NCBI RefSeq assembly: GCF_036174265.1
Contig: NZ_CP108055.1
Coordinates: 9,052,001-9,116,000 of the forward strand
Reading direction: 5' to 3'
DNA length: 64,000 nt
DNA from: Streptomyces sp. NBC_00285
GTDB lineage: Bacteria > Actinomycetota > Actinomycetes > Streptomycetales > Streptomycetaceae
This document shows positions 2,648 through 21,379 of this stretch, one piece after another. The notes below the pieces were generated by a model. The model did no database searches. It was not told the origin of the DNA and worked only from the letters and a program-made list of their open reading frames with translations. A program made the translations under genes and the position numbers. The number at the start of each line of letters is the position of its first letter. The first letter of the stretch is position 1.

Positions 2648-5600
2648 GTGTCCGGTTTCGAAGTACGCGTGCCCGGTATCGACGGCGCGGAAGGCGCACA
2701 CGCGGCCTTCTGGCTGCGTCGCCTCGCTCCGCTCCCGCAGGAGACCGCTCTCCCGGTCGATTTCCCGTACCCGCTGCGCGCCACCGGTGATCGGCACACC
2801 CTTCGCCGCCCGCTGACCACAACCGCCAGTGAATCGATTCTCCTGTCTGCGTACGCGGCCGTCCTGCACCGCTACAGCGGTGCCCGGGACATCACCCTCG
2901 GGTACGCCGGACTGCCGCTGAGGATCGCCGTCGACGGCGACGCGCCCTTCACGGACCTGGTGCGGCGGGTGTCCGAGGCGCGTGAGGAGGCCGAGGCCCA
3001 CCGGGTCGAACCCGACACGCTCGTCGACCTGTTGCGCCCCGACCCCACCCGGGGCGGCGGCATGCTCTTCAACACCGCGTTCGGCGACGTGCCGACCGGC
3101 GGGGACCTGCTCGACCTCGTGCTCGCGGTCCACGCCGGTGAGCTGCGGGTGACCTACCGCGACGACCTCTTCGAGGCCGCGACCGCCGAGCGCGTCGCCG
3201 ACCACTACTCGACCCTGCTCGCCGACGCCCTCGCCCACCCGCACACCCCCGTCGGCGAGTTGGCGCTGCTCGACGCCGAGGAGCACGGCCGCGTCCTGCG
3301 CGACTGGAACGACACCGACCACGACATCCCGCTGCGCACCTGGCCGGAGATGTTCGCCGACCAGGTACGGCAGCGCCCGGACGAGATCGCGCTGGTCTTC
3401 GAGGACACCCGGCTCACCTACGCCGAACTGGACGACCGCGCGGGCCGCCTGGCCGCCGCCCTGATCGCCCGGGGCGCCGGACCCGAGCGCGTGGTCGCCC
3501 TCGCGGTGCCCCGCTCGGCGGAGCTGATCGTCGCCGAGGTCGCGGTGCTGAAGTCGGGAGCCGCCTACCTCCCGGTCGACACCGACTACCCGGCCGACCG
3601 CATCTCGTACATGCTCGCCGACGCCACCCCCGTCTGCCTGGTCACCACCGCCGAGGTCACCGACGACATCCCGGCGAACGACGGCACCCAGGTCCTGGTC
3701 CTCGACGCGCCCGACACCGTACGGGAGTTGGCGGAGCACCGGCCCGCCGACTCCGACCCGGCCTCACTGTCGATCGCCAACGCCGCCTACGTCATCTACA
3801 CCTCCGGCTCCACCGGCCGCCCCAAGGGCGTGGTCCTCACCCACGCGGGCGTCGCCAAGCTGGTCGCCACACAGAGCGAGCGGTTCGGGATCGGCCCGCA
3901 CAGCCGGGTGCTCCAGTTCGCCTCGCCCAGCTTCGACGTGGCCTTCTGGGACCTGTGCCTCGGTCTGCTCTCCGGCGGCCGGCTCGTTGTCGTACCGTCC
4001 GAACGCCGGGTGCCCGGCCGCGCGTTGGCCGACTACGCCCACGCCAACGGCATCACGTTCATGATCCTGCCGCCCGCCCTGCTGGCCGCGATGCCCGAGG
4101 ACGTCGAACTCCCGCCCGCCACGCTGCTCGCGGGCACCGAGCGCGTCTCGCCCGAGCTGGTCGGACGGTACGCCCGCGGCAGGATGATGTTCAACGCGTA
4201 CGGCCCCACCGAGGCCACCACCAACTCCACCCTCGGCCTGTGCGACCCGGACATCCCGGCCGGTTCCGTCGTCCCCATCGGCATCCCGGACCCGGGCACG
4301 CGCGCGTACGTCCTCGACGGCCGCCTGGGGCCCGTCCCCGCCGGTGTCCCCGGCGAGCTGTACCTCGGCGGCGCCGGGCTCGCCCGTGGCTACCTCGGGC
4401 GGCCCGACCTGACCGCCGAGCGGTTCGTCGCCGATCCGTTCGGCGCACCGGGCGAACGCCTTTACCGCACCGGTGACCTGGTCCGTTGGCAGGCCGACGG
4501 CCGACTGGTCTTCCTGGGCCGCGCCGACTCCCAGGTCAAGATCCGCGGCTTCCGTATCGAGCCCGGCGAGATCGAGTCCGTGCTCCGCGCCCACCCGGCG
4601 GTCGACCAGGCAGCGGTCGTCGTACGCGAGGACCGCCCCGGCGACCGCCGCCTCGCCGCGTACGTCGTGCCCGCGCTGGACAGCGACGCGGCCGGCCATG
4701 ACAGAGCCGACCAGGTCCAGGAGTGGAAGGACCTGCACGAACTGCTGTACTCCGCCGCCGGATCGGAGGGCGGCACGGACGACCCGGCAACGCTCCGCGA
4801 GAACTTCGCGGGCTGGAACAGCATGTACGACGGGCTGCCCATCCCCGTCGAGGAGATGCGCGAGTGGCGCGCGGCGACCGTCGCCCGCATCACGGACCTC
4901 GCGCCCCGCCGCGTGCTGGAGATCGGCGTCGGCAGCGGTCTGATCCTCGCCCGCATCGCGCCCGACTGCGACGAGTACTGGGGCACCGACCTCTCCGAGG
5001 AGGCCGTAGGCGCCCTGCGCACCCAGATCCACGCGGTCCCCGAACTCGCCGACCGGGTACGGCTGTCCGCGCGGCCCGCGCACGACGTGAGCGGACTTCC
5101 GGCCGCCCACTTCGACACCGTCGTCATCAACTCCGTCGCCCAGTACTTCCCGAACGCCGACTACCTCACCGACGTCGTCCGCGCGGTCGGCACCCTCCTG
5201 GCCCCCGGCGGACGGCTGTTCATCGGAGACGTCCGCAACGCGCGACTCCTGCGCTGCCTGCGCGCGGCCGTGGAGAGCCGTCGCACCGACGACACGGACG
5301 ACAAGCAGGCCCTGTCGGCAGCCGTCGAGCGCTCGGTGGCCTGGGAGGGCGAACTCCTCCTGGACCCCGACTACTTCGCGGCGCTCGACGGCTTCGACGC
5401 CGAGATCCACGTCAAACGCGGCGCCCACCACAACGAACTGACCCGGTACCGCTACGACGTGATGCTCAGCAAGCAGACGGCCGTCCCGGAGCCGGCCGAC
5501 GGTACGGAGATCGTCTGGAGCGGGCCCGAGGCACTCGAAGCCCTCCTGGCCGAAGGACCCGCACTGCTCCGCGTCACCGGCGTGCCCAACGCCCGCCTCG

Positions 5601-6270
5601 CCGAGGACCTGGCCGCACTGTCCGCCCTGGACGACAGCAGCCGTACGGCGGACGCCCCGGACCCCGAGGTCTTCCACGCTCTCGGCGCCCGCCACGGCCT
5701 GCGCACCGCCGTCACCTGGAACGGCAGGGCCGACGACGGCAGCCTCGACATCGTGTTCGCCCTCGGCGACACCCCGCTCACCGGTCTCTACCGCCCTTCC
5801 GGCACGGCCCCGCACGCCAACCGTCCGGCACCCTTCCGGGACATCAACGCCCTGATGAGGGGCCTGCGTTCGTACGCCGCCGATCGGCTCCCCGAATACA
5901 TGGTCCCCGCGGCTGTCGTCCCCCTCGACCGGCTCCCGGTCACCCCGAGCGGCAAGCTCGACGGCGCCGCACTCCCGACCCCCGACTACGGCGCTCTCAG
6001 CGCGGGACGCCCGCCCCGCGACGCCCGCGAGGAACTCCTGTGCGCCGCCTACGCCGAGGTGCTGGGCCTGCGCTCGGCCACCATCGACGACGACTTCTTC
6101 GCCCTCGGCGGCGACAGCATCACCGCCATCCAGCTCCTCGTCCACGCCCGCCGGGCCGGTCTGCGCCTCAGCTCCCGGGACGTCTTCAAGCACCGCACGG
6201 TCGTCGCACTCGCCGCCGCGGCGGGCGAGGTCGTCCGGGAGGACGCCCGATCGGACACCCCCCTCGTCGT
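2648..6270 (+). other. NRPS module 1: truncated condensation domain, A1 with N-methyltransferase, T1
   Basis: Residues 1-225 resemble only the C-terminal half of a condensation domain ([11 protein letters not shown]...LPVDFPYP) and lack any HHxxxDG, as in other initiation modules that keep a C remnant. A1 carries [11 protein letters not shown] (~aa 383). My reading of its pocket is D-V-W-I-L-A-A-T-N-K, which I cannot assign; it loosely resembles aromatic or hydrophobic codes. A SAM-methyltransferase ([10 protein letters not shown], ~aa 756) is inserted between A8 and A10 (~aa 690-945). T1 carries LGGDSI, the form usual before epimerase domains, yet no epimerase follows. Confidence 0.75.
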
Positions 6271-21200: not shown

Positions 21201-21379
21201 GCCACGCCCTCGGCATCAACGTCGTCACCGAGGACCGCGCCGACGGGCCGGTGCTGGCCGCCCACTGGTCCTGGCCCGCCGCCGTTCTGTCCGAGGAGGC
21301 GGTCCGGGACCTGGCGGAGACCTGGTTCAGGGCGCTCAGGGCACTGGTCGCCCGCGCCGGGACCCCCGACCGACACTGA
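2648..21379 (+). CDS. Five-module nonribosomal peptide synthetase, probable hydroxamate siderophore synthetase (C*-A-MT-T-C-A-T-C-A-MT-T-C-A-T-C-A-T-E)
   Basis: A single 6,243-aa NRPS starting at GTG 2648, 11 nt after AGGAGG. Domain order: truncated C (aa 1-225), A1 with inserted N-methyltransferase (~230-1110), T1 (Ser ~1157), C2 (~1222-1665), A2, T2 (~2208), C3 (~2268-2700), A3 with methyltransferase (~2710-3590), T3 (~3632), C4, A4, T4 (~4653), C5, A5, T5 (~5725) and a C-terminal epimerase (~5780-6243). There is no thioesterase or reductase, so release must be by another enzyme or by intramolecular attack. A pockets 2 and 4 read as Ser, and A3 as N5-hydroxyornithine. The iron boxes, the MbtH gene and the divergent importer argue for a siderophore. 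No ornithine hydroxylase is in the window. Peptides of this style (N-methyl-hydroxyornithine plus Ser) include scabichelin and albachelin, but identity with either is not shown. Confidence 0.95.
6271..9430 (+). other. NRPS module 2: C2-A2-T2, predicted serine
   Basis: C2 opens with [14 protein letters not shown], a DCL-like N-terminus, and keeps an intact HHIVADG (aa 1363 onward). The A2 pocket residues read D-V-W-H-F-S-L-V-D-K, a close match to the known serine code. T2 again has LGGDSI (Ser ~aa 2208) without a following epimerase. Confidence 0.8.
9431..13690 (+). other. NRPS module 3: C3 (defective His motif), A3 with N-methyltransferase, T3, predicted N-methyl-hydroxyornithine
   Basis: C3 opens with [15 protein letters not shown] (DCL-like). 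Where HHxxxDG is expected it reads H2413-L-L-L-W-D-G, so the second, catalytic His is Leu (nt ~9881-9904). The A3 pocket reads D-M-E-N-L-G-L-I-N-K, the code known for N5-hydroxyornithine or its formyl form in coelichelin synthetase. An N-methyltransferase ([10 protein letters not shown], ~aa 3245) is inserted at ~aa 3185-3428, very similar to that of module 1. T3 has LGGHSL, the form usual before an LCL domain. Confidence 0.8.
13691..16760 (+). other. NRPS module 4: C4-A4-T4, predicted serine
   Basis: C4 is LCL-like ([11 protein letters not shown], then HHITTDEWS with both His present at aa 3817-3818). The A4 pocket reads D-V-W-H-L-S-L-V-D-K, matching serine. T4 carries LGGHSL. A2 and A4 share long identical runs (for example [11 protein letters not shown]), as expected for a duplicated or gene-converted Ser domain. 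Confidence 0.8.
16761..19970 (+). other. NRPS module 5: C5-A5-T5, substrate unassigned
   Basis: C5 is LCL-like ([20 protein letters not shown]). The A5 pocket reads approximately D-A-Q-E-G-G-L-V-D-K. Two extra residues before GGEAV make positions 299-301 uncertain. It is nearest in style to Gln/Glu-like codes, but a hydroxyornithine variant cannot be excluded. T5 carries LGGDSI and is followed directly by the epimerase. Confidence 0.65.
19971..21379 (+). other. NRPS terminal epimerization domain
   Basis: The epimerase signatures appear in order: [23 protein letters not shown] (~aa 5915), [29 protein letters not shown] and FNYLGRFD. The gene stops ~30 codons after the domain, so the last residue is predicted to be D-configured. 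An epimerase as the final domain, with no release domain in cis, implies release in trans or by spontaneous cyclisation. Confidence 0.85.

What the first reader, a model, noticed from the sequence alone, without database searches (positions are those of the whole stretch)
2648..21379. Five-module siderophore-type NRPS with internal DCL-like condensation domains but no internal epimerases, ending in E without a release domain
T1 and T2 carry LGGDSI, the carrier form usual before epimerases, and C2 and C3 open with the PLxPLQxG..FHS pattern of domains that accept D-residues. Yet only ~60 residues separate each T from the next C, so no epimerase is present. The only epimerase is the last domain, and no TE or R domain exists. 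Either E domains were lost, or C2/C3 also epimerise, or A1/A2 load D-residues. The predicted peptide is (N-Me)X-Ser-(N-Me)hydroxyornithine-Ser-D-X, which does not obviously equal a siderophore I know.
Basis: partly seen in the sequence, partly recalled or inferred. Interest (0 to 1): 0.75.

Follow-up and report, generated by a model that had tools for sequence, protein, structure and literature searches.

The report
Turgichelin-type siderophore synthetase, epimerases lost
This is very probably the enzyme that makes turgichelin, a known iron-scavenging peptide of Streptomyces; it seems to have lost two internal epimerase domains that some relatives keep, and one of its bond-forming domains lacks the usual catalytic histidine, as do nearly all related domains that feed in the same unusual amino acid.

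Summary
In detail: one 6243-aa NRPS with LGGDSI carriers T1/T2, D-donor-type C2/C3, no internal E, a terminal E and no TE. It is no orphan. The S. turgidiscabies orthologue is 89.8% identical with the same order and predicted residues; S. scabiei and S. antibioticus proteins are about 71% and differ in substrate type only at A4. Four Pseudonocardiaceae relatives carry E at exactly both junctions and C3 sits among E-preceded lineages, so E was probably lost. The published dual E/C motif is absent; configuration of residues 1-2 stays open. New: C3 lacks the second His of HHxxxDG. Of 282 C domains before a FDMSWEE (hydroxyornithine) A domain 273 lack it; of 1,087 before other A domains 4 do. The nine exceptions are last modules. 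I infer a class of C domains that forms the N5-hydroxamate bond.

The parts
2648..21379 (+). five-module NRPS, turgichelin-type synthetase (6243 aa)
2672..3304 (+). remnant of a C domain at the N-terminus (no His motif)
3392..4570 (+). A1 core, code DVWILGATNK, predicted formyl-hydroxyornithine
   Evidence: substrate inferred from the formula
4739..5527 (+). N-methyltransferase of module 1
6026..6217 (+). T1, LGGDSI
6323..7639 (+). C2, DCL clade, HHIVADG, no E before it
7727..8899 (+). A2 core, DVWHFSLVDK (Ser)
9179..9370 (+). T2, LGGDSI
9470..10792 (+). C3, DCL clade, second His of the motif replaced by Leu, no E before it
9884..9904 (+). C3 motif HLLLWDG in place of HHxxxDG
10880..12070 (+). 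A3 core, FDMSWEE, hydroxyornithine type
12215..13006 (+). N-methyltransferase of module 3
13460..13654 (+). T3, LGGHSL
13706..15037 (+). C4, LCL clade
15125..16237 (+). A4 core, DVWHLSLVDK (Ser)
16526..16720 (+). T4, LGGHSL
16784..18142 (+). C5, LCL clade
18230..19447 (+). A5 core, DAWEGGLVDK (hydroxyornithine, as quoted for scabichelin)
19739..19930 (+). T5, LGGDSI
19970..21322 (+). terminal E domain
21463..21615 (+). MbtH-like protein
1455..2480 (-). FecCD permease
   Evidence: L009:18756-19781
361..1278 (-). second FecCD domain (within the open frame 334-2412)
2507..2525 (.). iron-box-like palindrome, 2 mismatches to a recalled consensus
2571..2589 (.). second iron-box-like palindrome, 3 mismatches

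Best explanation
This is the turgichelin synthetase of a Streptomyces. Module 1 loads N5-formyl-N5-hydroxyornithine and N-methylates it; module 2 adds Ser; module 3 adds hydroxyornithine through its N5-hydroxylamine, which makes a hydroxamate within the chain, and N-methylates its alpha nitrogen; module 4 adds Ser; module 5 adds hydroxyornithine through its alpha nitrogen, E epimerises it, and its free N5-OH attacks the thioester so that the peptide leaves as a cyclic hydroxamate without a TE domain. E domains once followed T1 and T2 and were lost; T1/T2 keep the GGDSI signature and C2/C3 their D-donor ancestry. C3 is a specialised condensation domain without the second active-site His, which I infer suits the N5-hydroxylamine nucleophile. 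Shown here: architecture, its conservation, sequence relationships, formula match, E in relatives, His loss and its link to hydroxyornithine modules. Inferred: residue identities, N5 linkage at residue 3, release route, stereochemistry (my leaning: L at 1-4, D at 5).
For: Orthologues: S. turgidiscabies P0102 89.8% over 6242 aligned residues, S. scabiei P0168 70.5%, S. antibioticus P0197 71.3%, same order, A codes alike but for A4 type. A5 code DAWEGGLVDK is quoted for scabichelin hydroxyornithine (PMC7692728). C24H44N8O11 is the turgichelin formula in PMC10458595; the Orn-4 variant gives 647.3602 against scabichelin 647.36. S. scabiei BGC 33a (SCAB_85471) is reported to make both (PMC8914351). 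Ornithine monooxygenase, formyltransferase and transport genes lie within about 10.4 kb upstream; iron boxes. E loss: P0130, P0141, P0142, P0162 have E at both junctions; no-E C3 clade among E-preceded C3; linkers. C3: 273 of 282 C domains before FDMSWEE A lack the second His, 4 of 1,087 others. TE-less release by C-terminal hydroxyornithine cyclisation is described for other siderophores.
Against: Kodani 2013, the primary scabichelin/turgichelin paper, was not read; that turgichelin comes from S. turgidiscabies is recalled. The turgichelin formula I saw is a putative MS annotation in S. rimosus. P0168 was not checked to be SCAB_85471 itself. At 25 clade-separating positions C2/C3 have not drifted towards LCL states (145.8 and 142.1; E-preceded DCL median 158, LCL -176), which could mean they still take D donors. 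The linker signal is modest: with 32 residues C3 scored -15.3 against -16.3, and the C2 linker is negative under both models. Polarity of E1 is less clear than of E2. No TE or hydrolase that could help release was seen, but only selected ORFs were scanned.
Confidence: 0.8

Rival explanations
1. C2 and C3 both epimerise and condense (dual activity without the known motif), so residues 1 and 2 of the peptide are D although no E precedes.
For: C2/C3 and the GGDSI carriers stay DCL-like in hundreds of E-less sequences (272 C2-lineage and 202 C3-lineage rows, related); scabichelin and turgichelin are said not to be all-L (PMC6024995).
Against: The HH[I/L]xxxxGD motif of dual domains is absent in 225 of 225 C domains. 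C3 has even lost the second His. The terminal E alone explains a D residue. C domains of DCL descent that act on L donors are postulated for glycopeptides (PMC1894796).
Confidence: 0.3
2. A1/A2 load D-amino acids, or an epimerase works in trans.
For: Not excluded by domain order.
Against: The A2 code is an ordinary Ser code. Among the 25 C-family places found in the genome, one lies outside NRPS frames, and it matches the C but not the E model.
Confidence: 0.05
3. The loss of the second His in C3 says nothing about the nucleophile: it arose once and travels with the hydroxyornithine A domain as a C-A unit, and another residue or a shifted His does the same job.
For: Single origin is not rejected, so the 273 cases are not independent; in most the preceding His remains and could be read as shifted; the role of this His varies between C domains (PMC11546977).
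Against: 12 of 28 His-less modules read in the class-wide set have no His at either position. The models of C3 and C2 end the strand five residues before the Asp alike, so there is no shift. Hydroxyornithine modules expected to link through the alpha nitrogen keep HH, also next to a His-less one in the same protein (L189-L191).
Confidence: 0.3
4. The synthetase is degenerate: after E loss it no longer works.
For: Missing E domains and a truncated first C.
Against: The same order in 16 of 121 and 58 of 120 proteins, intact frame, accessory genes and iron boxes.
Confidence: 0.03

Closest known systems
Turgichelin/scabichelin synthetase (S. turgidiscabies; S. scabiei, BGC 33a)
   Same: Five modules in the same order, no internal E, terminal E, A codes alike in type except A4; 89.8% and 70.5% identity
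   Different: A4 is Ser-type here and in S. turgidiscabies, DGWDAGLVDK in S. scabiei and S. antibioticus
Albachelin-like six-module synthetases (for example P0002; Herbidospora nrps-1 in PMC4599437)
   Same: Same first four modules and terminal E, no internal E; P0002 84.9% identical over aligned parts
   Different: One extra module before the last
E-bearing six-module synthetases of Amycolatopsis and Kibdelosporangium (P0130, P0141, P0142, P0162)
   Same: Same A-code types for modules 1-4 in the two read (P0130, P0162), terminal E, C3 motif HHLLLWDG
   Different: Complete starter C, no MT in module 1, E after both T1 and T2
Coelichelin-type synthetases (L195-L199; name recalled from size and order)
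   Same: Last C domain has the motif YHLLLWDG before a FDMSWEE A domain
   Different: Three modules with E after T1 and T2
DCL condensation domains with solved structure (TycB, PvdL, SrfA-C, McyB; their donor type is recalled)
   Same: Best solved relatives of C2 and C3 by sequence; TycB, SrfA-C and PvdL also by fold for C3
   Different: C3 lacks the second active-site His; here no E precedes

Membership tests
turgichelin/scabichelin synthetase | five modules A-MT-T / C-A-T / C-A-MT-T / C-A-T / C-A-T-E | tested here: met
   S. turgidiscabies, S. scabiei and S. antibioticus proteins show the same order
turgichelin/scabichelin synthetase | A5 code DAWEGGLVDK (hydroxyornithine) | tested here: met
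   against the code quoted in PMC7692728
turgichelin/scabichelin synthetase | over 70% full-length identity to the synthetase of a species tied to the product | tested here: met
   89.8% S. turgidiscabies, 70.5% S. scabiei; the tie of S. turgidiscabies to turgichelin is recalled
turgichelin/scabichelin synthetase | ornithine N5-monooxygenase, formyltransferase and siderophore transport genes alongside | tested here: met
turgichelin/scabichelin synthetase | product of mass 620.313 with the turgichelin structure | not testable with these tools
   formula of the predicted peptide agrees
dual E/C condensation domain (C2, C3) | second His motif HH[I/L]xxxxGD near the N-terminus | tested here: not met
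   0 of 225 C domains; definition in PMC1894796
DCL condensation domain (C2, C3) | groups with C domains that follow E domains | tested here: met
   clade of 96, support 1.0, holds 21 of 21 E-preceded C
DCL condensation domain (C2, C3) | an E domain stands upstream | tested here: not met
DCL condensation domain (C2, C3) | takes a D-configured donor | not testable with these tools
   clade-separating positions stay DCL-like but may be clade markers
ordinary LCL condensation domain (C2, C3) | LCL clade and LPxDxxRP | tested here: not met
canonical C domain (C3) | HHxxxDG with the second His | tested here: not met
   HLLLWDG

The most novel reading that the evidence does not exclude
C3 belongs to a class of condensation domains that form hydroxamate bonds: they join the incoming hydroxyornithine through its N5-hydroxylamine, a nucleophile that is neutral at cell pH, and have dispensed with the second His of HHxxxDG (some with both His), whereas hydroxyornithine modules that link through the alpha nitrogen keep HH. 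The motif would then predict the linkage in hydroxyornithine siderophores from sequence, and offers a natural His-free case for asking what that His does in ordinary C domains.
Probability: 0.6. Interest if true: 0.65.

Novelty: new variant of a known kind. Interest (0 to 1): 0.5.

Why it matters
What is worth following is the His-less C domain in front of hydroxyornithine modules. The role of the second His of HHxxxDG is still debated (PMC11546977, passages); a natural class that works without it, tied to one nucleophile, makes the question testable and would let genome mining tell N5-linked from alpha-linked hydroxyornithine. The family also gives a clear case of E loss at two junctions with E-bearing relatives at hand, useful for asking what C domains do once the upstream epimerase has gone.

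Tried and rejected
Rejected: product unknown (orthologues, codes, formula). Rejected: recent or strain-specific E loss (0 of 121 proteins have an internal E). Rejected: E domains hidden by a weak model (T-C gaps of 34-36 aa). Rejected: a stand-alone epimerase (the one C-like ORF outside NRPS frames matches the C, not the E model). Weakened: two origins of the WDG motif, as the first trees showed; with the motif columns dropped and 76 rows, holding the 20 WDG rows together gave a log-likelihood 29.27 higher than the quick free tree, p-AU 0.876. Weakened: the motif as a one-residue shift that keeps HH (my note); relatives without His at either position and the two models speak against it. The 32-residue linker score hardly separated the two models for the C3 linker; I reran it with 22 residues and report both. 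The LCL/DCL position index did not decide donor stereochemistry. Near-copies were dropped before trees or training (225 of 347 C domains kept; 311 of 416). Not done: the primary paper (Kodani 2013) did not come up in any search and was not read.
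Full report
What is there. The frame 2648-21379 on the + strand encodes 6243 aa. Pfam and HMMs built from its own domains give a remnant of a C domain, A1-MT-T1, C2-A2-T2, C3-A3-MT-T3, C4-A4-T4, C5-A5-T5-E. T1, T2 and T5 read LGGDSI, T3 and T4 LGGHSL. Between the T and C models lie 36 and 34 residues at the two questioned junctions. The last domain carries the E motif HHLVTDG and passes TIGR01720 (87.1 against 74.2 bits).

Surroundings. The cluster runs beyond the window; I fetched 20 kb upstream (L009). 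Within about 10.4 kb of the NRPS lie an ornithine N5-monooxygenase (346 bits), a formyltransferase, two ABC proteins of exporter build, a periplasmic-binding-type protein, an ABC ATPase and FecCD permease domains; an MbtH gene follows the NRPS. Iron-box-like palindromes (recalled consensus, up to 3 mismatches; none in 100 and 200 shuffles) lie at window 2507 and 2571 in front of the NRPS and at L009:14238 and L009:15642 near the monooxygenase and formyltransferase genes. No TE-like gene turned up among the ORFs scanned, which were not all ORFs.

What it makes. A protein search with residues 1120-2720 scored 814 candidates and listed 120; with the window protein, 16 of 121 have the five-module order, 104 have six modules (2 of them without a second MT call), 1 is cut short, and none has an internal E. 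Among the five-module ones are four S. turgidiscabies proteins. A second search from the S. stelliscabiei orthologue listed 120 proteins, 58 of them five-module, among them S. scabiei (P0168) and S. antibioticus (P0197). Identity to the window protein is 89.8% over 6242 aligned residues (P0102, S. turgidiscabies), 70.5% over 6181 (P0168) and 71.3% over 6174 (P0197). A codes agree except at A4, Ser-type here and in S. turgidiscabies and DGWDAGLVDK in the other two; within the Ser codes one position varies. The A5 code DAWEGGLVDK is the one quoted for hydroxyornithine in scabichelin (PMC7692728, passage). NMe-fhOrn, Ser, NMe-hOrn, Ser and a C-terminal lactam of hOrn sum to C24H44N8O11, the formula behind the turgichelin ion C24H43N8O11 listed in PMC10458595 (passages; a putative annotation in S. 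rimosus); with Orn in place of Ser-4 the mass is 647.3602, the scabichelin mass of 647.36 in PMC7692728. PMC8914351 (passages) assigns both compounds to S. scabiei BGC 33a; I did not check that P0168 is that very locus. That turgichelin was isolated from S. turgidiscabies is recalled. Since the formula leaves room for one formyl group and the compound is called a tris-hydroxamate (title of Kodani 2013, seen in reference lists), the hydroxamate of residue 3 can only be its bond to Ser-2 through N5. This is inference from the formula.

Release. TE-less release by cyclisation of a C-terminal hydroxyornithine is described for chlorodactyloferrin, amychelin and kineochelin, with separate hydrolases or TEs proposed (PMC10683483, PMC13238742; passages). 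The missing TE is therefore not strange.

The missing epimerases. In a FastTree of 225 C domains (of 347; near-copies dropped) with 15 E domains as outgroup, C4 and C5 fall in a clade of 119 that holds all 93 GGHS-preceded C (and 14 GGDS-preceded); C2 and C3 fall in a clade of 96 (support 1.0) with all 21 E-preceded C, 53 GGDS-preceded C without E, and none with LPxDxxRP. The best solved relatives of C2 and C3 are domains I recall as DCL. The dual E/C motif HH[I/L]xxxxGD (PMC1894796, parts of two sections read) occurs in 0 of 225. Four Pseudonocardiaceae synthetases (P0130, P0141, P0142, P0162; 7741-7958 aa; P0130 61.5% identical to the window protein over 6018 residues) have the six-module series but with E after T1 and E after T2. 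In an IQ-TREE of 50 C domains the E-less C3 of the window family and of the L049 type form one clade (7 rows, SH-aLRT 99) among E-preceded C3; L189-L191 and L175/L177 types without E lie outside it, and for C2 several lineages lack E1, so polarity there is less clear. The last 22 residues before C2 and C3 resemble E-C linkers more than T-C linkers (C2 -12.1 against -26.9, C3 3.3 against -15.0; C4 and C5 the reverse), as in 177 of 198 such junctions, 1 of 269 GGHS junctions and 125 of 128 E junctions, the last two by leave-one-out. With 32 residues the signal was weaker: C2 -22.7 against -34.2, C3 -15.3 against -16.3, 231 of 310, 0 of 229, 117 of 119. I conclude that both E domains were probably lost. 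The six-module order without internal E was already printed for Herbidospora, and albachelin with E after module 2 (PMC4599437, passages); a five-module set with the same order was printed for Phytohabitans (PMC7692728).

Stereochemistry. PMC6024995 (parts 1 and 2 of 3 read) says that albisporachelin, unlike scabichelin and turgichelin, is all-L. The terminal E alone would explain this. At 25 positions that best separate E-preceded DCL from LCL domains C2 and C3 have not moved towards LCL (145.8 and 142.1; DCL median 158, LCL -176). These may be clade markers: Rausch et al. report glycopeptide C domains in the DCL clade that act on L donors. I lean to L at residues 1-2 and hold dual activity at 0.3.

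C3. Its motif is HLLLWDG where others have HHxxxDG. Over 1,369 distinct C-A pairs from the proteins gathered, the second His is present in 1,083 of 1,087 C domains before other A domains (4 have Arg) and absent in 273 of 282 before FDMSWEE A domains, the type of A3. The nine exceptions are last modules: in L189-L191 the second of two hydroxyornithine modules, 10-18 residues from the protein end; in L175, L177, L192 and L233, L234, L236 a TE-like stretch follows. Some His-less modules are last modules too (coelichelin type; L251 with a TE-like stretch), so position alone does not make the difference. The rule covers coelichelin-type synthetases (L195-L199) and 13 genera outside the window's own in a class-wide search (83 of 394 genomes with a match; only the top 30 loci and 12 more regions were read). 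Of 32 modules printed there 28 lack the second His, 12 of these lack His at both positions, 3 have HH and 1 could not be scored. The cases are related by descent: a single origin is not rejected. AlphaFold models of C3 (pLDDT 91.5) and C2 (89.0) end the strand five residues before the Asp in both, so Leu sits where the second His would; no coordinates were compared. PMC11546977 (passages) calls the role of this His debated, base or positioner of the alpha-amino group. My inference: these domains present the N5-hydroxylamine, which needs no base, and loss of the His that positions the alpha-amine favours attack by N5. Two literature searches aimed at this (12 of 92 and 15 of 746 papers shown, seen as listings, one opened for passages) showed no title or abstract that describes such a class; most subscription papers are not held.

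Verdict. Observation confirmed; product very probably known; E loss likely; C3 type not described in what I could search.

Noticed in passing
window 2672-3304: The protein starts with the C-terminal half of a C domain; Pseudonocardiaceae relatives have a complete starter C there and no MT in module 1, as if N-acylation had been exchanged for N-methylation.
   Followed up: partly
window 13706-18142: C4 and C5 read HHITTDE and HHIAGDE, Glu in place of the Gly of HHxxxDG, seen in many C4/C5 homologues too.
   Followed up: no
L214, L217, L222-L229, L237, L238: Relatives, most in other genera, whose hydroxyornithine-module C domain has no His at either motif position (for example NRQVLLWDG, SRRFLVWDG, TSELILLDG).
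   Followed up: partly
P0002, P0130 and other six-module relatives, last C domain: C6 reads QHLLLDG (first His changed), lies in the DCL clade and follows a GGDS carrier without E, also in relatives that keep E1 and E2.
   Followed up: no
L049, L050, L053, between T2 and C3: An Ala-rich linker of about 100 residues stands where relatives have an E domain.
   Followed up: no
G000:C1:1179218-1195860 and 1286704-1330456: Other NRPS loci in the same genome.
   Followed up: no
L205 (G000:C1:3669506-3670699): A condensation-like ORF outside NRPS frames (open frame 496 aa), beside a frame that reads like a nucleotidyltransferase; it matches the C but not the E model.
   Followed up: yes
window 54129-57110 (-): Galactocerebrosidase-like GH59 protein of 993 aa (Pfam PF02057).
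   Followed up: no
L048 (G010), L069, L077, L088: Related synthetases whose reading frame is interrupted in the assembly; left as found.
   Followed up: no
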